Notes under the pieces: model-generated
Seen by the model: only the letters and a program-made list of their open reading frames with translations
Databases searched by the model: none
Told to the model about the DNA's origin: nothing
In this document: positions 18,920 to 31,375 of the stretch, piece by piece
How positions within the stretch are numbered: the first letter of the stretch is position 1
Layout: each line of letters starts with the position of its first letter
Translations under genes and position numbers: made by a program
Source of the DNA: Planctomycetota bacterium
GTDB taxonomy: Bacteria > Planctomycetota > Phycisphaerae > Phycisphaerales > Phycisphaeraceae
Direction: 5' to 3'
Assembly (NCBI GenBank): GCA_024276075.1
Contig: JAJRXX010000026.1
Location: 1 to 33,471 of the forward strand
DNA length: 33,471 nucleotides

Positions 18920-19388
18920 AAAATAATAGCCGCATTGATCCCCTGCAATACCAGAACAATCGTGCACATCCGTTGCTGAAAACCTCCATACAGAAACCGG
19001 CACCTAAATATCCACCAAGACGCCTGCCGTCGACGCAATCTCCAATCTGATACCAATCAAGATTAATACTTGCGCGACATCTGCGAACGCGAAGGCAAAA
19101 CAGACAATAACTTACATCCTTTACAACGCGCTAGAACTATACGCAATGCGTATGACAACCCGTTAGTAATCAAATCATTATTGCATAACAACTCGATGAA
19201 ACCAGTCTCGCACTAAGCCGAAATACCTATTTGGAATTGTCGCTTCGCATTTCCGGTCCGCGATAAAACCACTTGCTAGAAAAGATTTGGAAATACCACA
19301 AAAGACCCTAGGCTTTCCATAGTTTACCTGTACAATAAAATTTCATTTCATGCTATTACGCCAACATCCCGGCAAGAGGATGACGTCG
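18920..19388. other. AT-richer intergenic region upstream of the glycosyltransferase pair
   Basis: This 470-base stretch separates divergent sulfotransferase and glycosyltransferase starts. The only structure I see is a 15-base near-perfect palindrome at 19139-19153 (ATACGCA then TGCGTAT around a central A). A TACAAT at 19331-19336 could be a -10 box, but I find no matching -35. Confidence 0.5.
19139..19153. promoter_or_regulatory. 15-base palindrome, possible operator
   Basis: ATACGCA (19139-19145) and TGCGTAT (19147-19153) are inverted around one base, in the intergenic space between divergent surface-polysaccharide genes. It could bind a dimeric regulator. A related half-site pattern (ATACGCA-T-TGCGT) occurs at 8001-8012 upstream of proA. 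Confidence 0.35.
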
Positions 19389-20702
19389 ATGTCGATTCTA
19401 TTAGCACAAAAGCACATGACAATTCATGACTCCGATACCTCGATCGAATCACCGGTCAACGAAAGTGAACCGCTGCGCATTGCCTATCTCGTCAATCAAT
19501 ACCCAAAGCTCAGTCACTCATTCATTCGCAGGGAAATACGTGCGCTCGAGTCGCTCGGCGCCCACATTGTCCGTATCGCAATACGTGCCCCAAAAGAATC
19601 CTGTGTAAACGACGCCGACCTTGAGGAGCGATCCCGTACACGTGTCGTGTTGGAAATGGGATGGACCCGATTACTGGTTACGGTGCTATGCACTTTTGCT
19701 GTACACCCTATTACTGCGACATACGCTCTGAGTCTGGCGATCGCAATGGGGTGGAAATCCGACCGCAGCATCTTGCGACATCTGGCCTATCTCGCAGAAG
19801 CCTGCGTCATGATGCAATGGCTACGAGATACAAAACTAAAACTGATACACGTCCACTTCGGGACGAACGCTGCGACAGTGGCACTACTATGTAAACAGCT
19901 CGGTGGGCCGCCATTCAGCTTCACCGCCCACGGCCCCGAAGAATTCGACAAACCCGACGCTCTCTCGTTGCCTCGCAAGATACGCGAAGCCGCCTTTGTA
20001 ATTGCGATCAGTGAATTTTGCCGTGGTCAACTCTGCCGATGGGTCGAATACGAGCAGTGGGGGAAAATCCATGTTGTACGCTGCGGACTAGATCGCTCGG
20101 AATGGAGCCATACAAATGAACCCGTGCCCGCAGCGAAACGGCTCATCTGTGTGGGGCGCCTCTGTGAGCAAAAAGGACAACCGCTCCTAATCGAAGCGGC
20201 AGCGAAACTGGCGCAGCAAGGGGTGGACTTTCAGCTAACGATCGTCGGCGACGGCCCTTTAAAACACGCCATAGAACGACAGATCGAACAACTCGGTCTA
20301 AGCAAATTCGTCCACCTCACGGGACCACTTCCCGAAAAGAAAGTTCGAGATCATCTATTACACTCCCGCGCACTCGTGTTGCCCAGCTTTGCCGAAGGGC
20401 TGCCAGTGGTGATCATGGAAGCCTTTGCACTTGGACGACCAGTGATCAGCACCTGGGTCGCGGGTATCCCGGAACTCGTGGAACCGGGTGTAAACGGATG
20501 GTTGGTATCACCTAGTTCCGTAGACGCTCTGGTGCAGGCGATGTCTCAGGCACTAACTCTGTCGCCCAAAACGCTTCGTGACATGGGACAGCAAGGTGCC
20601 ACACGTGTCGCCCAACTGCACGACATCGAACAAACAGCCAGACACCTGACAGACCTCTTCCATGAGGTAGCTCGATCTGGTGCACGAAGGGCGGTCGCAT
20701 GA
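19389..20702 (+). CDS. Glycosyltransferase family 4 (GT-B fold)
   Basis: Cytosolic enzyme of about 437 residues, likely adding a sugar to an exopolysaccharide or lipid-linked intermediate. The N-domain opens with PLRIAYLVNQYPKLSHSFIRREIRALE, a common GT4 start, then FHVHFGTNAATVALL-like and FSFTAHGPEEFDKP stretches. The C-domain has RLICVGRLCEQKGQPLLIEA and the E-x7-E donor-binding motif SFAEGLPVVIMEAFALG (near residues 335-351). The ATG at 19389 follows AAGAGG (19374-19379) at good spacing; ATGs at 19350 and 19380 are in frame. Its stop overlaps the next ATG in ATGA, so translation is coupled to the GT2 gene. Sugar and acceptor cannot be told. Confidence 0.85.
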   Translation: MSILLAQKHMTIHDSDTSIESPVNESEPLRIAYLVNQYPKLSHSFIRREIRALESLGAHIVRIAIRAPKESCVNDADLEERSRTRVVLEMGWTRLLVTVLCTFAVHPITATYALSLAIAMGWKSDRSILRHLAYLAEACVMMQWLRDTKLKLIHVHFGTNAATVALLCKQLGGPPFSFTAHGPEEFDKPDALSLPRKIREAAFVIAISEFCRGQLCRWVEYEQWGKIHVVRCGLDRSEWSHTNEPVPAAKRLICVGRLCEQKGQPLLIEAAAKLAQQGVDFQLTIVGDGPLKHAIERQIEQLGLSKFVHLTGPLPEKKVRDHLLHSRALVLPSFAEGLPVVIMEAFALGRPVISTWVAGIPELVEPGVNGWLVSPSSVDALVQAMSQALTLSPKTLRDMGQQGATRVAQLHDIEQTARHLTDLFHEVARSGARRAVA

Positions 20703-21880
20703 ACGGTGCCCTCTATGTAATACTCCTCGTCTGTGCGATACTCTCACTGATACCTGCCATAGTACTCTCAGCAGCAGTCGTTGCTGCGATGCTGCCGCAG
20801 CGGCGACGCACAGCAATCGGATCTCATCGCCGTCCCCGTATTACTGTGATCGTACCCGCGCGTGATGAAGCATCTGGGATCGAACATACCTTGTATTCAC
20901 TGCTCGACCAGACGCAGCCGGGCGACCGCATCGTGATTGTTGCTGATAATTGCTCAGACGAAACCGCTGCGATTGCACGTCAGCATGACGTCGAAGTCAT
21001 CGAGCGTAACGACCCTTTACACGTCGGCAAAGGATACGCGCTGGCTTACGCAATCAAATACCTCGCCGCCGATCCACCGGAGATTGTGGTCTTTGTAGAT
21101 GCCGACTGTGTGTTCGAGCCGGGATCGCTCGATATCCTGACGCACACAGCAAATGTATCTGGACGACCGACGCAGGGATGGTACTTGCCCGTGGACCCCG
21201 GCGGCGCCAATGCGGCGGGATCAATTAATTATCTAGCTATACTGGTCAAAAACGGCGTACGACCGGAGGGGCTTCGACGTATGGGACTTCCGTGTCTGTT
21301 GACTGGCTCGGGCATGGCGATCCCATGGAAATTATTTGCAAAAGTGCCTATCGACAACACCCACATTGTCGAAGACATGCAGCTGGGAATCGAGTTAACC
21401 ATCGCGGGCGCCCCACCTACCTTCACTTCCCAAGCACGCATTGCTGGCGGCGGCACCCGTTCTACATCTGCTTCGATGACACAACGGAGACGTTGGGAGT
21501 ACGGCCACTTGCACACAATCAAAAATCAAGGGCCTCGTCTGTTGGCAGCCGCACTAAAAGGAGGTCGGCTCGACTGCTTAGCCCTGGCGGGCGAGTTGTG
21601 CGTCCCCCCCCTATCCTTATTAGTAATGATCCAAGGGCTACTTGTATCGATCTGTATCACCGCCATGATTGCTGGCGTCGAATGGCTGCCCACAGGAATC
21701 AGCAGCGCGGGGTTAATACTCGTCGGCGTAAGCGTTGTTTTGGCGTGGCTAAAATTTGGACGCGGACAAATTCCGGCAACCTCACTTCTACGCATCCCTT
21801 TGTACGCGCTTCGAAAAATACCCCTTTACGCATCATTCCTCACACGACCAGAAACACAATGGGTCAGAACCCCACGTTAG
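20699..21880 (+). CDS. Glycosyltransferase family 2, membrane-bound
   Basis: A 393-residue membrane enzyme. Membrane segments: one N-terminal (about residues 5-31) and two C-terminal (about 300-355). The GT-A domain has PRITVIVPARDEASGIEHTL (46-65), the metal-binding DAD at 134-136 in VVFVDADCVFEPGS, the acceptor IVEDMQLG motif near 224, and a QRRRW motif near 267. This D,D,D,QRRRW set is typical of processive or cellulose-synthase-like GT2 enzymes. It overlaps the GT4 stop by four bases (ATGA). The pair, with the sulfotransferase, suggests synthesis of a surface polysaccharide. No polymerase, flippase or export gene is visible nearby. Confidence 0.88.
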   Translation: MNGALYVILLVCAILSLIPAIVLSAAVVAAMLPQRRRTAIGSHRRPRITVIVPARDEASGIEHTLYSLLDQTQPGDRIVIVADNCSDETAAIARQHDVEVIERNDPLHVGKGYALAYAIKYLAADPPEIVVFVDADCVFEPGSLDILTHTANVSGRPTQGWYLPVDPGGANAAGSINYLAILVKNGVRPEGLRRMGLPCLLTGSGMAIPWKLFAKVPIDNTHIVEDMQLGIELTIAGAPPTFTSQARIAGGGTRSTSASMTQRRRWEYGHLHTIKNQGPRLLAAALKGGRLDCLALAGELCVPPLSLLVMIQGLLVSICITAMIAGVEWLPTGISSAGLILVGVSVVLAWLKFGRGQIPATSLLRIPLYALRKIPLYASFLTRPETQWVRTPR

Positions 21881-22436: not shown

Positions 22437-23990
22437 TTGACATTCACAGCTAATCAAAGTGACGCGGTGGTTTATCTGGTGGGCGCGGGGCCTGGCGATC
22501 CGGGTCTGATCACCGCGCGTGGGCTAAGCCTGCTGCGCCGTGCCGACGTCGTCGTCTACGACGCTTTGGCAAATCCCGTGTTACTGGACGAAGCACCGCC
22601 GGGCGCGGAACGTATCTATGTCGGTAAACGATCGCAACAGCACGCTTTGCCGCAAGACCAACTCAATCAATTGTTAGTCGACAAAGCTCGCGGACACAGC
22701 ATCGTCGTCCGTCTCAAGGGCGGCGACCCCTATTTATTCGGACGCGGAGCGGAGGAGGCCACCTATCTGGCGCAGCACGGGTTGCGGTGTGAGATTGTGC
22801 CAGGCGTCACAGCGGGGATCGCAGCGCCAGCGGCGGCGGGCGTACCCGTGACCCACCGCAACCACGCGAGCACCGTGACGTTTGTTACCGGGCACGAGGA
22901 CCCGACGAAAGGGCAATCCTCGATCGACTACCGTGCCCTGGCGGGGCTGATCCGGTCCGGCGGGACCGCGTGTTTTTACATGGGCGTCGGGCGACTGGGT
23001 GTGATCGCGGACGAGTTGGAGCGCTTCGGCTTGACGGGCTCCACGCCGGTGGCGGTGATCCAGTGGGGCACACTGCCCAAGCAGCGCAGCGTGCGGTCCA
23101 CGCTCGCGGCTGTGTCGGGCGACGTGACGGCTACAGGGCTGGGTGCACCGGCGATTATCGTCGTCGGGTCCGTCGCGGGGATCGACGAGACCGGGTTGGA
23201 TTACTTCACACGTCGGCCCTTGTTCGGCCAACGGGTTGTGATCACGCGCACACGTCAGCAGGCGTCTGAGCTGCGGGGGCGACTCGACGAGCTAGGGGCT
23301 TTAACACTCGAAGCACCCACGATCGAGCTGGTCGAACCCGATGATTGGTCGCCTGTGGACGACGCTATTGGGCATATCGATCAATACGATTGGCTGGTGC
23401 TCACAAGCGTCAACGGCGTGGCGGCGCTGGCGCAACGGCTCGAATACCTGCGCCTCGATGCTCGACACCTAGCAACGGTCAAGGTAGCCGTGATCGGCGA
23501 TGTGACGGGTACTGCGCTACGCACACAATTAGGCGTGGTGGCCGACCTGATGCCTGAACGATTCGTCGCTGAGTCGCTGGCGCAGCAGTTGATCGATCAG
23601 CACAGCGTCACGGGCAAGCGGTGCCTGCTGCTACGGGCGGACATCGCGCGTCCCGCATTACCAAAGCTGCTATCGCAGGCCGACGCGGACGTGACCGAGC
23701 TAACGGTGTATCAGACCAAGCGTGCTAATGAGCTGCCCGATGACGTGCTCGACGCGCTGCGTAAGAGCGAGATCGATTGGGTAACGTTTACCAGTTCGTC
23801 CACCGCGCAGAACATGGCCACGATGCTAGGCGATGAGCGGGCGTTGCTTGATCGTGTCAAGATCGCTTCGATTGGGCCGATTACCAGCGATGCACTGCGT
23901 GGCTTGGGCTTGACGCCGACCCTCGAGGCGGCCACGTCGAATATCCCCGGTCTCGTAGACGCACTGGTCAAAGCTGTAGCCTCGCAGTAA
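22437..23990 (+). CDS. Uroporphyrinogen-III C-methyltransferase / uroporphyrinogen-III synthase fusion
   Basis: A 517-residue bifunctional protein. Residues 1-255 are the SUMT (CobA) domain: VYLVGAGPGDPGLITARGL (13-31), LKGGDPYLFGRG near 90-101, and PGVTAGIAAPAAAGVPVTHR. It methylates uroporphyrinogen III with S-adenosylmethionine to precorrin-2. Residues 262-517 are a HemD-type synthase (GQRVVITRTRQQASELRGRL, DWLVLTSVNGVAAL, VTFTSSSTAQNM), which forms uroporphyrinogen III. Such CobA-HemD fusions are known in several bacterial groups. The start is a TTG at 22437 with AAGG ten bases upstream; the next good start would cut into the SUMT glycine-rich loop. It links heme and siroheme/cobalamin branches at one branch point. 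Confidence 0.93.
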   Translation: MTFTANQSDAVVYLVGAGPGDPGLITARGLSLLRRADVVVYDALANPVLLDEAPPGAERIYVGKRSQQHALPQDQLNQLLVDKARGHSIVVRLKGGDPYLFGRGAEEATYLAQHGLRCEIVPGVTAGIAAPAAAGVPVTHRNHASTVTFVTGHEDPTKGQSSIDYRALAGLIRSGGTACFYMGVGRLGVIADELERFGLTGSTPVAVIQWGTLPKQRSVRSTLAAVSGDVTATGLGAPAIIVVGSVAGIDETGLDYFTRRPLFGQRVVITRTRQQASELRGRLDELGALTLEAPTIELVEPDDWSPVDDAIGHIDQYDWLVLTSVNGVAALAQRLEYLRLDARHLATVKVAVIGDVTGTALRTQLGVVADLMPERFVAESLAQQLIDQHSVTGKRCLLLRADIARPALPKLLSQADADVTELTVYQTKRANELPDDVLDALRKSEIDWVTFTSSSTAQNMATMLGDERALLDRVKIASIGPITSDALRGLGLTPTLEAATSNIPGLVDALVKAVASQ

Positions 23991-25589: not shown

Positions 25590-26339
25590 TTACAGGCTCA
25601 GCCGCTTGAAGATCATCTCGGGGATCGACTTGATGATCAGCATGATCCAGCGCCAGAACCAGAGCGTGTATATCACGTCCTTCTTTTTCTCGATCGCCTT
25701 GGCTATATCCCTGGCCACTTGGTCTGGGCTGGCCATCACGGGTGAGTCTGCTTTCACCAGCCCCCACGTCATGGCGGTGTCGACGAACCCGGGCTTGACC
25801 GTCAACACAGGAACGCCCGCTTTGGCTAACCGATTTCGCAGGCCCTGGAGGTAGGCATTCAGGCCCGCCTTCGCGGAGCCGTAGATGTAGTTGCTGCCCC
25901 TGCCCCGATCACCCGCAACGGACGAGACCGCGCACAGCCAACCCGAGCGTTTCTGCTCAAAATAGTTCGACGCCAGGTTCAGCACCGACACCGCGGACGT
26001 GTAGTTCACGTCGATCATGAGTCGGGTCTTCTCGAAGTCCTCCTGTGCCTCGACCTGATCGGTCATGGCACCATGGCACAGGATCACGCCAGCTAGTTCA
26101 CCCTCGGCACGCTTTACGCATGCCTCGAAAAACGCCTCGTGCCGATCAAACGCCAGCGCATCGAACCGTTCCACACACGACTGGCTTTCGTAGCGCACGA
26201 GCAGGTCTTGCGAGAGGCTTTGCAGCGCTGCCTCGTCCCGGCCCGCTAGGATCAACCCGACCCCGCGCGACGCGAACACGCGTGCCAATGCACTACCAAT
26301 GCCCGACGTCGCGCCCACGATGACGATGCTGTTCTTCAT
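25590..26339 (-). CDS. DprE2-like short-chain reductase (polyprenylphosphoryl-2-keto-ribose reductase)
   Basis: A 249-residue SDR enzyme. The ATG at 26337-26339 overlaps the preceding stop by one base (TGATG), which indicates translational coupling. The Rossmann motif is VGATSGIGSALA, the active site is IYGSAKAGLNAYLQGLR (Tyr-x3-Lys), with a CHGAM loop and Ser in VSSVAG. The C-terminus ends with two aromatic-rich hydrophobic segments (IYTLWFWRWIMLIIKSIPEM) that suggest membrane association. Members with this tail include mycobacterial DprE2, which reduces the 2-keto intermediate made by DprE1 to polyprenyl-phospho-arabinose. The pairing with a DprE1-like oxidase right upstream makes this assignment likely. 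Confidence 0.82.
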   Translation of the reverse strand: MKNSIVIVGATSGIGSALARVFASRGVGLILAGRDEAALQSLSQDLLVRYESQSCVERFDALAFDRHEAFFEACVKRAEGELAGVILCHGAMTDQVEAQEDFEKTRLMIDVNYTSAVSVLNLASNYFEQKRSGWLCAVSSVAGDRGRGSNYIYGSAKAGLNAYLQGLRNRLAKAGVPVLTVKPGFVDTAMTWGLVKADSPVMASPDQVARDIAKAIEKKKDVIYTLWFWRWIMLIIKSIPEMIFKRLSL

Positions 26340-27703
26340 CAGATATCCACGATCCCCACGCGCCTCGCCTGCGACGATGAAAATCGGCACTGCGGATCGA
26401 TCCGCGATTTAACTTCTTTAAACTCCGCCAGACGAGGGTACATAGCCGCGAACGTGTCGGCTGTCATGGCCGCGTCCTTCGCCAGATACAGGCGCCCGTC
26501 GTACTTCAGAACGATCTCATCGAGGCGGCGCAACAGGTCCGTGAGTCTTTGGCCGGTGTTAGGCAGGTCCAATGCCAAGGTGTACCCCTCTTTGGGAAAC
26601 GATAGCATCCCATCGCCTTGGGGTCCCGTGCGTTTGAGCACCGCCAAGAACGACGACTGACGCGATTGTGATACCGCTTCGATCACCTCCACCAGCCCAC
26701 GCCTGGCGTTGTCGAGGCCAAACAACGCCTGGTACTGCACAAAGCCTCGCTTGCCATACATCCGATTCCAGTGCGTTACGCCGTCGAGCGGGTAAAAGTA
26801 GCTGTCCAAATCCACCACACGCCTGCCCTGTGGCGCGCGCTTGTAGTAGAACGTGTTGAACGCCTGCACCGTATACGGATTAAGCACAAAATTCGGAAAA
26901 TGGATTGGCATCGACTTCTTACGCCGTGGCCTGAGCACCAGCGGCCGGCTCAACGATTCGCTACGCAGGTCGCTCACGTCGGCGTGGTTGCCCCGCATCA
27001 GGACGGACCGCCCCAAATCTCCGTTCGTCGCCAGGCAATCGATCCACGCCACCGAGTATCGGTACCGTTCGTCATCGCCGCTGAACATCTCCAGCGCCTG
27101 GTCGAGGTTCCTCGCTTTTCCGTAGTCCACGTTGATGTACGCGGTCTCGATTGGCATAAGACGCAGACGCACCGACAAAATAATACCTGTTAGCCCCATA
27201 CCGCCGATCGTCGCCCAGAACACGTCCGCGTTTTGCTGGGGTGAGCACGTAAGCACCTCGCCTTGGGCTGTCAGCAGGTCTAAGGACTGCACAAAGCGCC
27301 CGATGGTGCCGTCGCAGTGATGATTTTTGCCGTGCACGTCCGCTGCCAACGCGCCACCTAGCGTCACGAACTTTGTCCCCGGTGTCACGGGCAGAAAATA
27401 CCCGCGCCTTACAAATGCCTCGATGATCTCTTCGAGCGACACGCCCGCTTCGCACTCAAGCACGCCGTGGGCCGGGTCAAACCCTGTAAAACGGTTCAGC
27501 CGCTGCTGGAGCAGCACCCCGCCGTTGGCGTTTACTGCGGAGTCGCCATAGCTGCGGCCCAACCCACGGGCGATGTAGTTCGGCTGATCGCCGTTTTGCA
27601 CGGTTTCCACTAACTCGCGCCGGCGTTCCGGGCGGAACACGCTGCAGGTCTCTTGCTCGTATTGACCCCAACCACTCAGAGTTGCGTCTACGCCCTGCGC
27701 CAT
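26339..27703 (-). CDS. DprE1-like FAD-dependent oxidase (decaprenylphosphoryl-ribose oxidase-like)
   Basis: A 454-residue FAD-binding (PCMH-type) oxidoreductase. The ATG at 27701-27703 is chosen; a TTG at 27718 adds five residues. Family signatures: YIARGLGRSYGDSAVN (near 45-60), TLGGALAADVHGKNHH (near 120-135), SLDLLTAQGEV, and a substrate-domain run including YYKRAPQGRRVVDLDSYFYPLDG. These closely match mycobacterial DprE1, which oxidises the 2'-hydroxyl of polyprenyl-phospho-ribose. The gene is the middle one in a three-gene run with HAD-UbiA upstream and DprE2-like downstream. It is probably peripheral at the inner membrane. It could instead be a generic aldose oxidase, but the context argues against that. 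Confidence 0.85.
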   Translation of the reverse strand: MAQGVDATLSGWGQYEQETCSVFRPERRRELVETVQNGDQPNYIARGLGRSYGDSAVNANGGVLLQQRLNRFTGFDPAHGVLECEAGVSLEEIIEAFVRRGYFLPVTPGTKFVTLGGALAADVHGKNHHCDGTIGRFVQSLDLLTAQGEVLTCSPQQNADVFWATIGGMGLTGIILSVRLRLMPIETAYINVDYGKARNLDQALEMFSGDDERYRYSVAWIDCLATNGDLGRSVLMRGNHADVSDLRSESLSRPLVLRPRRKKSMPIHFPNFVLNPYTVQAFNTFYYKRAPQGRRVVDLDSYFYPLDGVTHWNRMYGKRGFVQYQALFGLDNARRGLVEVIEAVSQSRQSSFLAVLKRTGPQGDGMLSFPKEGYTLALDLPNTGQRLTDLLRRLDEIVLKYDGRLYLAKDAAMTADTFAAMYPRLAEFKEVKSRIDPQCRFSSSQARRVGIVDI

Positions 27704-27770
27704 TAACAGAATCCCCAATACCCCGATTTGCGACCCTGAACTCTCAAGAAAGCCCCCGCCACATCTTCCA

Positions 27771-29270
27771 CTACAACGCCGCCATAAGCACGATCACCCC
27801 CACCACACCCACCAATACCAAGCTCGCCACATCCTTCGTTACAAACACCACCGGATCGTACGACATCTCCCCTCGCTTGGCCAAGAACCACACTCGGCTG
27901 ATCCAGTACATCAGGATCGGCGGGACCAGCCATAGGTACTGCGGGTTTCCGTATAAATTTTGAGCCGTCGCACTGCTCACGTATAGGCACAGGATCATCA
28001 CGGACAAGTATCCACTGATGCAGCCGAAGGTCTCCACCAAACCGATGTCACCCGCTTGATACCCGCGGCCGTGCAGCGACGTCTGTGATTTCCCGATCGT
28101 CTCTGCCAGTTCACAGTACCGCTTCACAAAAGCCAGGCTTGTAAAGAAGAACACCGAAAACGCCAGCAGCCACTCCGACACCGCCACATCCACCGCCACC
28201 CCGCCCGCCAGTATCCGCAGCGTGTAAAACCCCGCCAACGCCAATACGTCCACAACCAGCTTGCGCTTCAAGTGGAATGAGTACACCGTGGTCAGCACCA
28301 TGTACGCCACCAGCAGCGCGACGAACCCCGCAGGCAGCAGGACCAATGACAGCCCAAATGCCCCCGCCAACAGTAGGCCCACCATCGCCACGCCCACACG
28401 CACGCTCAACTGACCACTGGCGAACGGTCGGTTGCACTTCACGCTGTGACGGCGATCCGACTCCAGGTCCAGAAGATCGTTCATCACGTACAGACCCGAT
28501 GCGCATAGGCTGTATGCGACAAACGCCACCACATTTAGCGGTATCTTCGATAGCTCACTCAAGTCGTGCTTCAACATGAACGGCAAGAACAACAGCAGGT
28601 TCTTTATCCACTGGTGCGCACGCAGCGCACGAAATACACCCACCCACCACCGCCCACCCGAGTCGAACACCCGGTCCACTTCACACGTACCACGCACACG
28701 CTGCGTCAAACGGGGGCCGGGCGACACCATGATCGCTCGCCCCGACGCCTCCCAGACCGGCATATCCGCCCAGCTATCACCGATGTAATCAAAGCCAGCC
28801 GATCCTAGAGACCGCCGGATCCATGCCAGCTTTGTCGCACCCGCCACGTTCGTCTGACCGTCGCTCGCCAACACGTCATCAAACAGCCCCAGGTGCGTCG
28901 CCACCCCCTGAGCGATGCTCTCGTCCGCTGCCGTCGCCAACACCAAACGACGACCCGATCGCTTCTGCTCTTCCAGATACGTCAATATTTCTTGCCGGTA
29001 CGGCAGCAACTCGGCACTGAGCTGAACACGCTCAGCGATACGACGCTTCATGTTCGCCTTGCCCCCTCGCAACAACCACACCACCGCCAACAGCAGTGCC
29101 CACGGCTGCGACCTGGCCAACATGCACAGCGACTCCCACAGCGTGTCCGTCGCCACGAGCGTGCCGTCCAAATCGACACAGAGCGCACGATCACTGCTGG
29201 GGGTGTCCCCATGTCGAGCGGCCTGCGCATCTGCCGATGCGCTATCAACGCTACTGATTGCCTGTTTCAT
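27771..29270 (-). CDS. HAD phosphatase-UbiA prenyltransferase fusion (decaprenyl-phosphate phosphoribosyltransferase-like)
   Basis: A fusion protein of about 499 residues. Residues 28-200 form a HAD domain with nucleophile motif CVDLDGTLV (Asp33/Asp35), LVLATAADES motif II and IGDSWADMPVWEASG motif IV. Residues 215-499 are a UbiA-type polyprenyl transferase with about eight or nine membrane segments, the first Asp-rich motif NDLLDLESDRRH near 262 and the YSFHLKRKLVVDVLALAG second motif. This UbiA subgroup includes decaprenyl-phosphate phosphoribose synthase (mycobacterial UbiA). It should move phosphoribose from PRPP to a polyprenyl phosphate. The HAD domain may then remove the 5-phosphate. 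The ATG at 29268-29270 is chosen; a GTG at 29333 is in frame. It precedes the DprE1-like gene by 67 bases. Confidence 0.85.
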   Translation of the reverse strand: MKQAISSVDSASADAQAARHGDTPSSDRALCVDLDGTLVATDTLWESLCMLARSQPWALLLAVVWLLRGGKANMKRRIAERVQLSAELLPYRQEILTYLEEQKRSGRRLVLATAADESIAQGVATHLGLFDDVLASDGQTNVAGATKLAWIRRSLGSAGFDYIGDSWADMPVWEASGRAIMVSPGPRLTQRVRGTCEVDRVFDSGGRWWVGVFRALRAHQWIKNLLLFLPFMLKHDLSELSKIPLNVVAFVAYSLCASGLYVMNDLLDLESDRRHSVKCNRPFASGQLSVRVGVAMVGLLLAGAFGLSLVLLPAGFVALLVAYMVLTTVYSFHLKRKLVVDVLALAGFYTLRILAGGVAVDVAVSEWLLAFSVFFFTSLAFVKRYCELAETIGKSQTSLHGRGYQAGDIGLVETFGCISGYLSVMILCLYVSSATAQNLYGNPQYLWLVPPILMYWISRVWFLAKRGEMSYDPVVFVTKDVASLVLVGVVGVIVLMAAL

Positions 29271-29569: not shown

Positions 29570-30139
29570 ATGATCCGCGTGTTAATCGCCGCCGTTGCCG
29601 GGGCTGTCGTTCTGTTCGTTTGGGGGACCGTCTCCTGGACGGTTCTGCCTTGGCACACAGCCACCCTGAACACCCTCCCAAATGAGCAGACTGTTGTGGG
29701 AGCGCTCAAGGCCCAGCTACCGCACACCGGGGTCTACTACTTCCCCGCATGCCCAGCCGACTACGATGATACCGAGGCTGTGGAACAGTGGACTGCTCGG
29801 CACAAGCAGGGCCCTATCGGACTGATGTTCTATCAAGCCCAGGGCGCCGAGCCTATGCCAGGCTCGATGTTCGGCGTCGGATTCGCGCTTGACCTGATCG
29901 CCACATTTGTCATGGCCTGGATCGTGTGCCTATCGTCTCACCACGCAAACACGTTCCTCAAGCGTCTGGGCGTCGCCACGATGCTAGGCATCCTCGTGGC
30001 GGTATTCGCCGACCTGATGCTGTGGAATTGGATGCGCGCTCCGGCTCACTACACACTAATCAACGCCGCCGACCACATCGTCGCCGCTACGCTAGCCGGA
30101 ATCCCCATCGCCGCGATTATCAAACCTTGCGCCAAATAA
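29570..30139 (+). CDS. Predicted membrane protein of unknown function
   Basis: A 189-residue protein that I do not recognise. An N-terminal membrane segment (VLIAAVAGAVVLFVWGTVSWTVL), an external loop of about 75 residues, then three membrane segments (FALDLIATFVMAWIVCLS, LGVATMLGILVAVFADLMLW, and AATLAGIPIAAII). The loop holds PHTGVYYFPACPADYDDTEAVE and the first loop includes LPWHTATLN. GAGG at 29559-29562, seven bases before the ATG, decides the start, and an extended -10 box sits at 29506-29514. It is divergently transcribed from the HAD-UbiA gene. Domains resemble uncharacterised proteobacterial and planctomycete inner-membrane proteins, from memory only. Confidence 0.8.
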   Translation: MIRVLIAAVAGAVVLFVWGTVSWTVLPWHTATLNTLPNEQTVVGALKAQLPHTGVYYFPACPADYDDTEAVEQWTARHKQGPIGLMFYQAQGAEPMPGSMFGVGFALDLIATFVMAWIVCLSSHHANTFLKRLGVATMLGILVAVFADLMLWNWMRAPAHYTLINAADHIVAATLAGIPIAAIIKPCAK

Positions 30140-30304: not shown

Positions 30305-31375
30305 TCAATCAAACACCGCTGTACTGTCCGCGGTCATCTCCAACATACCCAGACACCACGGAATCTCGCTATACACCGTGCCGAACCCTACGTTCCCCTT
30401 CGCGCCCTGGAACAGGAATCGCAACCCCGTCGGCTCGATTTCCAAACGCTGGTCGTGCCCAGCGCGGATCAACTCGCCGTGGCTAACCGAGTCCGTCCAC
30501 GCCTGATCTGGGAACGCGGTGTTGATCCGCCCGGCAAACGGGTCCGTCCTGCTCGCCGCCAGCGGCGCCCACGATCCGTCTAGCCGATCCGCCACGTAGG
30601 CTTTGTAGTATCGCCTACCCCAGCTCTTCGCCTCCACCACCGCCAGATACTTCTGCATCCCCTTGATCTTGTAGACATGCCCCGCCTCGTAGATGTCACC
30701 GAGCAGGACCACCTCCGGTCGGCTCCAGCCGTTTGGGAAGTCCGCCACCGGCGTCTGTGCTCGCCACATCCTGCCGTCCATGCTCGTGAAGAACAGATAC
30801 GCTGTCTCGTCGTCGCAGATCACCCAAAAGTCCAGCCAACCCGTGATATTCGTCGGGTGTTCGTCGAACATCATCCGTGGCCCCGTCCACGAAGCCGGGT
30901 CGCTGATATCCTCCGTCGTCGAATACGCAGGCCCGATGCGCAGCGCATCGCCCGGCGGCGCTACCGTCTGGTAGATCAGATACCACTTCCCCTGCGGCTG
31001 AAAATAGAACACCTGCGGCGCACAGTAGTACCCCTCTGTGATATTGAGCATCGTGCGATCGGCTTCATCGACACGCGACCAGTCCTCGAAGCTGAAATAC
31101 TCGATCTGGTGCGACCGTTTCCTGCCCCGCACCGTACAGAACAGGTGCCACCGCCCCTGGTACCACACCACCGTCGGGTCCTTTATCGAGATGTATTCAT
31201 CTTCCTGCGACTGCCTGGGCGTCACGATCGGTACGCCGCTGGCCACCCACCTGAACGCGGCACCCTGACGTGTTTCACTTCGCTCGCCACGGCCCTGCTG
31301 CATTGCGTAGCGGCCAAGAAGCACACACACGCCCGCCACCGCAAACACCATTAGCCATGCGAAGCGACTTTCCAC
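30305..31375 (-). CDS. Glycoside hydrolase family 62 alpha-L-arabinofuranosidase-like protein, membrane anchored
   Basis: A 356-residue enzyme. The N-terminus (FAWLMVFAVAGVCVLLGRYA, residues 5-24) is a membrane anchor or uncleaved signal, so the catalytic domain faces the periplasm or outside. Residues 40-356 match GH62: SIKDPTVVWYQGRWHLFC (Asp66 as base), GWLDFWVICDDE (Asp182, pKa modulator), GDIYEAGHVYKI (Glu230 as acid), and an IEYFSFEDWS stretch. GH62 enzymes release arabinofuranose side chains from arabinoxylan or arabinan. GAGG nine bases before a GTG start at 31373-31375 supports the start. GH62 is mainly known from fungi and actinobacteria, so presence here is unusual. It sits one gene away from the polyprenyl-P-arabinose operon. 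Confidence 0.88.
   Translation of the reverse strand: MESRFAWLMVFAVAGVCVLLGRYAMQQGRGERSETRQGAAFRWVASGVPIVTPRQSQEDEYISIKDPTVVWYQGRWHLFCTVRGRKRSHQIEYFSFEDWSRVDEADRTMLNITEGYYCAPQVFYFQPQGKWYLIYQTVAPPGDALRIGPAYSTTEDISDPASWTGPRMMFDEHPTNITGWLDFWVICDDETAYLFFTSMDGRMWRAQTPVADFPNGWSRPEVVLLGDIYEAGHVYKIKGMQKYLAVVEAKSWGRRYYKAYVADRLDGSWAPLAASRTDPFAGRINTAFPDQAWTDSVSHGELIRAGHDQRLEIEPTGLRFLFQGAKGNVGFGTVYSEIPWCLGMLEMTADSTAVFD

What the first reader, a model, noticed from the sequence alone, without database searches (positions are those of the whole stretch)
25590..29270. Apparent complete polyprenyl-phosphoryl-arabinose (DPA-type) operon outside Actinobacteria, with HAD phosphatase fused to UbiA
Three same-strand genes encode a UbiA-type phosphoribosyltransferase, a DprE1-like oxidase and a DprE2-like reductase; the last two overlap by one base. 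In mycobacteria these steps plus a separate phosphatase convert polyprenyl-P and PRPP to polyprenyl-P-arabinose, the only arabinose donor for cell-envelope arabinan. Here a HAD domain with an intact DLDGT nucleophile motif is fused in front of UbiA and could supply the missing 5-phosphate removal. This would make an all-in-one donor pathway in a planctomycete-like genome, which suggests arabinofuranosylated surface glycans.
Basis: partly seen in the sequence, partly recalled or inferred. Interest (0 to 1): 0.8.

Follow-up and report, generated by a model that had tools for sequence, protein, structure and literature searches.

The report
Planctomycete operon making lipid-linked arabinose donor
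A planctomycete genome carries a three-gene set that very probably makes the same kind of lipid-bound arabinose that tuberculosis bacteria use for their cell wall; this is real, but the same gene set occurs in many bacteria outside the mycobacteria and its fused first enzyme has already been characterised in a relative.

Summary
On the minus strand, 29270-25590, lie a HAD-UbiA fusion, a DprE1-like oxidase and a DprE2-like reductase; the last two share one base (TGATG). Family models, solved structures, 10 of 11 PRPP-contact residues and an AlphaFold model (UbiA half closest to Rv3806c, Z 29) agree on: PRPP + polyprenyl phosphate -> polyprenyl-P-ribose-5-P -> (HAD) polyprenyl-P-ribose -> (DprE1/DprE2) polyprenyl-P-arabinofuranose. 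It is not rare outside Actinobacteria. The fusion was proven biochemically in Citrobacter youngae ORF15 (PMC11127046), which also reports candidate arabinofuranose systems with DprE1/E2. So: a new member of a known kind, in a Phycisphaerales-like planctomycete. Added here is a candidate for the missing transferase: an unlinked 536-residue protein (G000:C74:65614-67221) whose relatives sit beside this operon, with an SMR transporter, in two other planctomycetes, and which aligns weakly with the catalytic Asp and Arg of mycobacterial AftB. Flippase, acceptor glycan and all activities are untested.

The parts
27771..29270 (-). HAD-UbiA fusion, predicted bifunctional polyprenyl-phosphate phosphoribosyltransferase / 5-phosphatase (499 aa from ATG 29270; GTG 29333 is an alternative start)
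28656..29201 (-). HAD phosphatase domain (residues 24-205): DLDGT nucleophile, T113, K147, GDSxxD
   Evidence: 3fvv Z 17.4, SerB types about 14-15; D33, D35, D169 in 60 of 60
27774..28649 (-). UbiA-type phosphoribosyltransferase domain (residues 208-499) with NDxxDxxxD
   Evidence: (8j8j Z 29.1)
26339..27700 (-). DprE1-like FAD oxidase (453 aa from ATG 27700; TTG 27718 alternative)
25590..26339 (-). DprE2-like SDR reductase (249 aa from ATG 26339, one-base overlap with the oxidase stop)

Best explanation
The operon makes polyprenyl-phosphoryl-beta-D-arabinofuranose. Step 1: the UbiA half of the fusion moves 5-phosphoribose from PRPP to polyprenyl phosphate. Step 2: the fused HAD half removes the 5-phosphate (shown for the relative Citrobacter ORF15, inferred here). 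Step 3: DprE1 oxidises C2 of the ribose with FAD. Step 4: DprE2 reduces the 2-keto sugar to arabinose with NAD(P)H. The lipid sugar is then flipped and used on the outer face by a GT-C transferase; the best candidate in this genome is the unlinked 536-aa protein at G000:C74:65614-67221 (minus strand). The lipid is probably undecaprenyl phosphate, as in other Gram-negatives. Steps 1 to 4 rest on homology and conserved residues; flipping, transfer and acceptor are inferred.
For: Family models (window included in each count): 60 of 60 aligned fusions match PRK08238, 23 of 23 oxidases match DprE1, 20 of 20 reductases match PRK07102 and DprE2 (these 20 also match many other SDR models, more weakly by best E-value). 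Of 11 Rv3806c residues that bind PRPP or Mg (list from PMC10994848 section 10), 10 are identical in the window; 9 of these are invariant in 60 of 60 fusions and the tenth is Tyr or Phe. HAD D33, D35 and D169 in 60 of 60. AlphaFold model, mean pLDDT 93.8, best match 8j8j (Z 29.1, 2.7 A, 284 residues), HAD half like phosphoserine phosphatases. DprE1 H132, K134, Q334, Q336, Y415 and K418 equivalents in 23 of 23; DprE2 S-Y-K in 20 of 20. Same gene order in 38 of the 40 loci holding all three genes, out of 80 kept. GT-C plus SMR transporter beside the operon in G231 and G079; the G231 GT-C matches the own-genome candidate at 337 bits. In the phylum sample of 294 genomes the GT-C profile hits 13, of which 12 have DprE1, against 53 of the other 281 (Fisher p 6e-8; without the three founders 9 of 10, p 5e-6; counts compared by hand, test). 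Biochemistry of the fusion: PMC11127046.
Against: No enzyme was assayed. DprE1 and DprE2 score under the NCBIfam equivalog cut-offs. Rv3806c Q135 (ribose O3 contact) is Thr here and Thr or Ser in 58 of 60 fusions. Of 15 DprE1 positions compared, 5 differ (S228V, Y314F, G321T, N385T, C387A). No SMR flippase was found in the genome, which is 95.8 percent complete. The GT-C candidate is 1 of 13 PMT_2-type proteins (11 over the cut-off), is unlinked to the operon, its PDB match to AftB is weak (E 0.01) and is lost with a 10-row profile. The multi-helix protein beside the operon in a third planctomycete, G123, matches nothing in the own-genome stretches. The Fisher test ignores shared ancestry. The alternative GT-C-like family next to proteobacterial operons was not found in this genome, but that search had no positive control.
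Confidence: 0.87

Rival explanations
1. The fusion makes polyprenyl-P-ribofuranose that is itself the main donor, and DprE1/DprE2 act only in part or make a different epimer, so that ribofuranose or another pentofuranose is what is transferred.
For: In the order sample 26 relatives with a hit were examined in 6-20 kb around it (22 with both halves there) and only 5 had DprE1 and DprE2 in that stretch, so the fusion often stands without them; Citrobacter O1 uses ribofuranose directly and its GT-C accepts ribose or xylose (PMC11127046).
Against: Here DprE1 and DprE2 directly follow the fusion, as in 38 of 40 other loci, and DprE1/DprE2 are known only for C2 epimerisation of lipid-linked ribose (established for mycobacteria, recalled; restated in PMC11127046).
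Confidence: 0.08
2. The HAD domain is not the phosphatase of this lipid; it has another role and a separate enzyme removes the phosphate.
For: In Citrobacter the D18A mutant of the HAD nucleophile still gave some dephosphorylated product (PMC11127046), so other phosphatases can act; mycobacteria use an unrelated protein.
Against: The same mutant gave the 5-phosphate product, with only a small amount of the dephosphorylated one; HAD motif residues D33, D35, T37, T113, K147 and D169 are kept in 57 to 60 of 60 fusions.
Confidence: 0.05
3. The C74 protein is not the arabinosyltransferase; one of the other 12 PMT_2-type proteins, or a GT-C outside that family, uses the donor.
For: Thirteen PMT_2 hits exist in the genome; one at C31 sits next to a Wzx-type flippase gene, which would also supply a transporter. 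The linked multi-helix gene in G123 is unlike the C74 protein.
Against: Among the ORFs of the nine own-genome stretches fetched around all 13 PMT_2 hits, only the C74 protein matches the GT-Cs that lie beside the operon in G231 and G079; the C31 cluster has its own GT2 genes that could feed it.
Confidence: 0.4

Closest known systems
Citrobacter youngae O1 ORF15 (PRP-PPPRS fusion) and its three-component pentofuranose system (PMC11127046)
   Same: N-terminal HAD phosphatase fused to a UbiA-type polyprenyl-P phosphoribosyltransferase; same order of domains and the same NDxxDxxxD motif as described in that paper (its sequence was not aligned here).
   Different: Citrobacter O1 stops at ribofuranose (O2 makes xylofuranose with an SDR epimerase) and links a MATE flippase and a GT136 transferase; the window adds DprE1 and DprE2 and has neither flippase nor transferase beside it.
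Mycobacterial DPA pathway (Rv3806c, phosphatase, DprE1 Rv3790, DprE2 Rv3791)
   Same: Same four chemical steps; best solved-structure matches for all three proteins.
   Different: Phosphatase fused as a HAD domain rather than a separate unrelated protein; Cys387 of DprE1 is Ala in 23 of 23 proteins aligned, window included; no EmbC-type transferase.
Pseudomonas paraeruginosa PSPA7_6245-6251 pilin D-arabinosylation (PMC12369383) and Azorhizobium noeCHOP Nod-factor arabinosylation (PMC2443382)
   Same: DPA-type donor genes outside Actinobacteria, already in print.
   Different: Per PMC11127046 the P. aeruginosa synthase has no fused HAD domain; acceptors there are pilin and Nod factor, here unknown.
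NCBIfam PRK08238 / PRK07102
   Same: The window fusion and reductase score above these cut-offs; these are the generic names under which such enzymes sit in annotated genomes.
   Different: The family names (UbiA family prenyltransferase, SDR family oxidoreductase) do not state the arabinose function.

Membership tests
HAD-UbiA polyprenyl phosphoribofuranose synthase (ORF15 / PRK08238 type) | HAD phosphatase and UbiA phosphoribosyltransferase in one chain, above family cut-off | tested here: met
   620 bits, cut-off 351; whole-length model
HAD-UbiA polyprenyl phosphoribofuranose synthase (ORF15 / PRK08238 type) | PRPP-binding residues of the phosphoribosyltransferase site | tested here: met
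   10 of 11 Rv3806c contacts identical; Q135 is Thr
HAD-UbiA polyprenyl phosphoribofuranose synthase (ORF15 / PRK08238 type) | Makes polyprenyl-P-ribose from PRPP and polyprenyl-P | not testable with these tools
   needs an enzyme assay
DprE1 | NCBIfam equivalog cut-off | tested here: not met
   487 bits against a cut-off of 500; the window has the best E-value of the 23 scanned, so none of the 23 reaches it
DprE1 | Flavin and substrate residues of the M. tuberculosis enzyme (roles and positions recalled) | tested here: met
   10 of 15 positions compared are identical, among them H132, K134, Q334, Q336, Y415, K418 (23 of 23 aligned); S228, Y314, G321, N385 and C387 differ
DprE2 | NCBIfam equivalog cut-off | tested here: not met
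   185 bits against 250; PRK07102 is met, 305 against 267
DprE2 | Best solved-structure match is DprE2 and catalytic S-Y-K | tested here: met
   21gq_C 104.8 bits, next 61.5; S140, Y153, K157 in 20 of 20
Three-component pentofuranose glycosylation system | Flippase of MATE or SMR type beside the synthase | tested here: not met
   none seen among the window genes scanned; no SMR in the genome; SMR beside the operon in G231 and G079
Three-component pentofuranose glycosylation system | GT-C transferase beside the synthase | tested here: not met
   no PMT_2 hit in the window contig; unlinked candidate at C74
EmbC-type arabinosyltransferases | PF04602 domain in the genome | tested here: not met
   0 matches at E<=1; control rang in C. 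glutamicum
AftB-like arabinosyltransferases | Sequence relation and catalytic D62 and R221 for the C74 candidate | tested here: inconclusive
   E 0.01; D62 and R221 align with the invariant D58 and R213; no match with the 10-row profile

The most novel reading that the evidence does not exclude
Planctomycetes of this group decorate a surface glycan or protein with D-arabinofuranose using a previously unnamed GT-C family (the C74 protein and its operon-linked relatives in G231 and G079), distantly related to AftB, which together with the HAD-UbiA, DprE1, DprE2 and SMR genes forms a complete, compact arabinosylation cassette parallel to the mycobacterial one.
Probability: 0.4. Interest if true: 0.5.

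Novelty: new member of a known kind. Interest (0 to 1): 0.32.

Why it matters
It shows that the arabinose-donor pathway targeted by tuberculosis drugs is a general bacterial tool, present in Proteobacteria, Acidobacteria, Planctomycetes and others, often with the phosphatase fused to the synthase. It gives a source of naturally fused enzymes and of DprE1 relatives with Ala in place of the Cys that reacts with benzothiazinones (that role recalled), and it points to a testable arabinosyltransferase in a phylum for which my searches found no paper on this pathway.

Tried and rejected
Unrelated UbiA family: rejected on scores and fold. Sugar-alcohol or lactone oxidase for the DprE1-like protein: rejected, 328 against 53 bits. 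Operon restricted to Actinobacteria plus this window: rejected. Dedicated EmbC-type transferase in the genome: none found. SMR flippase in the genome: none found (58 had a working control, 35 did not). The multi-helix family that follows DprE2 in proteobacterial operons as the transferase here: not found (no control). The AftB match was re-tested with a broader profile and was lost; the C74 protein alone matches no solved protein at E<=1. GH62 gene upstream as part of the operon: not supported, a gene on the other strand lies between, and no GH62 match lay in the 80 kept loci or the 59 genome stretches. No tree was built.

Literature: PMC11127046 seen in outline, passages and sections 7 and 12 (its supplement, with the candidate arabinose systems, was not seen); PMC10994848 passages and section 10; PMC12369383, PMC2443382 and PMC12041299 passages only; all other papers in search listings only. 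PMC3151058, the main pilin paper, is not held. Searches for planctomycetes with DprE1 gave one paper that looks off-topic (listing) and with arabinofuranose plus decaprenyl none; the library misses most subscription papers.
Full report
What is there. The finding is real at the stated place. Three minus-strand genes lie at 29270-27771 (HAD-UbiA), 27700-26339 (DprE1-like) and 26339-25590 (DprE2-like); the last two share the A of TGATG. The mechanical ORF list starts the fusion at a GTG (29333) and the reductase at a GTG (26390), but the ATG codons at 29270 and 26339 fit the homology better.

Identity of the three proteins. The fusion scores 620 bits with NCBIfam PRK08238 (cut-off 351), a model 482 positions long that covers both halves; its UbiA half scores 114 to 153 bits with three decaprenyl-phosphate phosphoribosyltransferase models (below their cut-offs) and at most 38 with other UbiA families. 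The only solved structures it matches by sequence are the two of the M. tuberculosis enzyme. The oxidase matches DprE1 at 487 bits (cut-off 500) and its PDB hits are DprE1 at 328 bits, then xylitol oxidase at 53. The reductase is below the mycobacterial DprE2 line (185 against 250) and above PRK07102 (305 against 267); its best solved relative is DprE2 (105 bits, next 62). Alignments were made of the window with 59 fusions, 22 oxidases and 19 reductases out of the 80 loci. All 60 fusions match PRK08238, all 23 oxidases match the DprE1 model, and all 20 reductases match PRK07102 and the DprE2 model, though these 20 also match many other SDR models. The window has the best DprE1 E-value of its 23, and the best DprE2 E-value of the 20 (3.1e-63) still falls, by my estimate, short of the cut-off, so the sub-cut-off scores look like a property of the group rather than of this window.

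Active sites. PMC10994848 section 10 names residues of Rv3806c that bind PRPP or Mg: R22, K28, Y70, N73, D77, K87, R90, Q135, Y138, K143, Y157. Mapped through the alignment, ten are identical in the window and Q135 is Thr. In 60 aligned fusions R22, K28, Y70, N73, D77, K87, R90, Y138 and K143 are invariant, Y157 is Tyr in 57 and Phe in 3, and the Q135 position is Thr in 54, Ser in 4, Asn in 1, Ala in 1. According to that paper the phosphoribose sites are not shared with the ordinary UbiA superfamily, so this is a fair test of function. In the HAD half D33, D35 and D169 are invariant in 60, T37 and K147 are in 59, T113 in 57 with Ser in the other 3; the GDS aspartate (D165) is Asp in 24, Asn in 35 and Ser in 1. 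The window has all of them. In DprE1, 10 of 15 positions compared with the M. tuberculosis enzyme are identical and 5 differ: S228V, Y314F, G321T, N385T, C387A. The equivalents of H132, K134, Q334, Q336, Y415 and K418 are conserved in 23 of 23, and Cys387 is Ala in 23 of 23. The roles of these DprE1 residues, and Cys387 as the covalent target of benzothiazinones, are recalled.

Structure. The AlphaFold model of the window fusion, on an alignment of 60 rows, has mean pLDDT 93.8 and pTM 0.90. The UbiA half fits 8j8j with Z 29.1, 2.7 A over 284 residues (8j8k, the same enzyme, 26.1), above archaeal UbiA enzymes at Z 21.3 or less; the HAD half fits 3fvv (Z 17.4, titled unknown function) and phosphoserine phosphatases (about 14 to 15).

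How widespread. All 80 have both halves, as expected from that choice; 45 have DprE1 and 40 have DprE1 and DprE2, and in 38 of these 40 the order and strand are those of the window, with gaps between the matched parts of at most 132 and 162 bases. By title, most are Proteobacteria; 9 are Planctomycetota, 2 of them with DprE1 and DprE2; others include Acidobacteria, KSB1, Ignavibacteria, Pedosphaera and Nitrospira. No title among the 80 names an actinobacterium, but the query favours fusions, so this says nothing of unfused actinobacterial genes. Several loci are short, so absence of a neighbour is often untested. In the phylum sample, 96 of 294 genomes have some UbiA match at 1e-10 and 13 of 294 (own included) a full-length fusion; 65 of 294 have a DprE1 match at 1e-30. 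Comparing the lists, 7 of the 13 with the fusion have DprE1, so 58 of the 65 with DprE1 lack a full-length fusion; three fetched stretches show DprE1, DprE2 and an unfused UbiA gene in a row (L156, L158, L162). The fused form is therefore one of two arrangements in this phylum, and not the commoner one. Within the order, 29 of 301 genomes match at 1e-40, some with one half only; of 26 relatives examined (22 with both halves), 5 have DprE1 and DprE2 nearby (two further matches on very short contigs were not examined). So the fusion often stands alone, as in the ribofuranose system of Citrobacter.

Host. The window is contig C18 of a 2.88 Mb draft genome, 95.8 percent complete. A named contig titled Phycisphaeraceae bacterium SP4387 (L212) is identical over 18.6 kb to a genome listed as same family, so the organism is a Phycisphaerales-like planctomycete; the title is the depositor's.

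The missing transferase and flippase. None was recognised in the window among the genes scanned. In G231 (same family) the operon is followed by an SMR-type transporter and a multi-helix protein; in G079 two such genes flank it. The G231 protein matches one own-genome protein, G000:C74:65614-67221, at 337 bits, and the G079 protein matches it at 40 bits; the multi-helix gene beside the operon in G123 matches none. The C74 protein carries a PMT_2 domain (32.5 bits, cut-off 26.1) and a sub-cut-off match to a putative glycosyltransferase family of NCBIfam (52.8 bits, cut-off 200). A profile of the three finds 13 of 294 phylum genomes, 12 of them with DprE1, against 53 of the other 281; leaving out the three founders, 9 of 10 (lists compared by hand; Fisher 6e-8 and 5e-6; shared ancestry not corrected). 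Only four of the 13 exceed 400 bits, and six further GT-C stretches that were fetched (L163-L168) show no DprE gene nearby. The only solved protein that the profile meets at E<=1 is the arabinosyltransferase AftB (E 0.01); there the residues at AftB 62 (catalytic Asp) and 221 (essential Arg; PMC12041299 passages) fall on the invariant D58 and R213 of the family (positions counted by eye from the printed alignment). With a profile of ten more diverse rows the match is lost, and the paper says that all GT-CA enzymes share such an Asp, so this is a lead only. A possible distant relative (43 bits to the ten-row profile, with a composition bias of 24; no match to the three-row profile) lies directly upstream of the operon in a Competibacteraceae genome, L192. 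In proteobacterial operons another multi-helix family often follows DprE2: of 40 loci with both genes, 13 have an ORF with three or more predicted helices starting within 120 bases, 10 of which belong to one family of 15 proteins; four members scanned have no significant Pfam match, and the family was not found in the own genome (no control). No SMR protein was found in the own genome (control rang in 11 of 14), so the flippase may be of MATE/Wzx type, as in Citrobacter; one such gene sits beside a PMT_2 protein at C31, without a link to this operon.

Comparison with the literature. PMC11127046 shows by NMR and mutants that the HAD-UbiA fusion of Citrobacter youngae makes farnesyl-P-ribofuranose from PRPP, the HAD nucleophile mutant giving the 5-phosphate with a little of the final product; it reports DprE1/E2 homologues in candidate arabinofuranose systems and calls the strategy widespread. 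Arabinosylated pilin of P. paraeruginosa and Nod factors of Azorhizobium are older examples. The window is therefore a new member of a known kind. The parts that I did not find in print, within the searches, are the planctomycete case and the GT-C candidate.

Noticed in passing
30305-31375 (-): A GH62 glycoside hydrolase gene (Pfam 3.6e-45, PDB 9e-72; known members are alpha-L-arabinofuranosidases) lies about 1 kb upstream on the same strand, separated by a gene on the other strand (29570-30139). Arabinofuranose-cleaving and arabinofuranose-making genes side by side may be chance; that GH62 acts on L-arabinose in known cases is from entry names and recall.
   Followed up: partly
19350-21880 (+): Two glycosyltransferase genes related to exopolysaccharide EpsE (229 bits) and EpsU (166 bits), both below NCBIfam cut-offs, about 4 kb from the operon; a possible acceptor pathway.
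   Followed up: no
L046:8615-10222 (G000:C74:65614-67221): 536-aa multi-helix protein, candidate arabinosyltransferase, with a C-terminal NLDGKVN motif; NLD is invariant in the ten relatives aligned.
   Followed up: partly
26339-27700 (-), residue 376 of the 453-aa oxidase: The DprE1 position of Cys387 is Ala in 23 of 23 non-actinobacterial proteins aligned, window included.
   Followed up: yes
L055, L056 (G258, G168): HAD-UbiA without DprE1 or DprE2 nearby but with a conserved 415-aa protein of about ten helices beside it; the L055 copy has no Pfam family; possibly a transferase for ribofuranose.
   Followed up: no
L156, L158, L162 (G056, G171, G132): DprE1, DprE2 and an unfused UbiA gene in a row on one strand: a second, unfused arrangement in the same phylum.
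   Followed up: no
22437-23990 (+): Fused tetrapyrrole methylase and uroporphyrinogen-III synthase HemD.
   Followed up: no
L183:12529-14304 and relatives: A multi-helix protein family without significant Pfam match directly downstream of DprE2 in many proteobacterial operons; perhaps the transferase there.
   Followed up: partly
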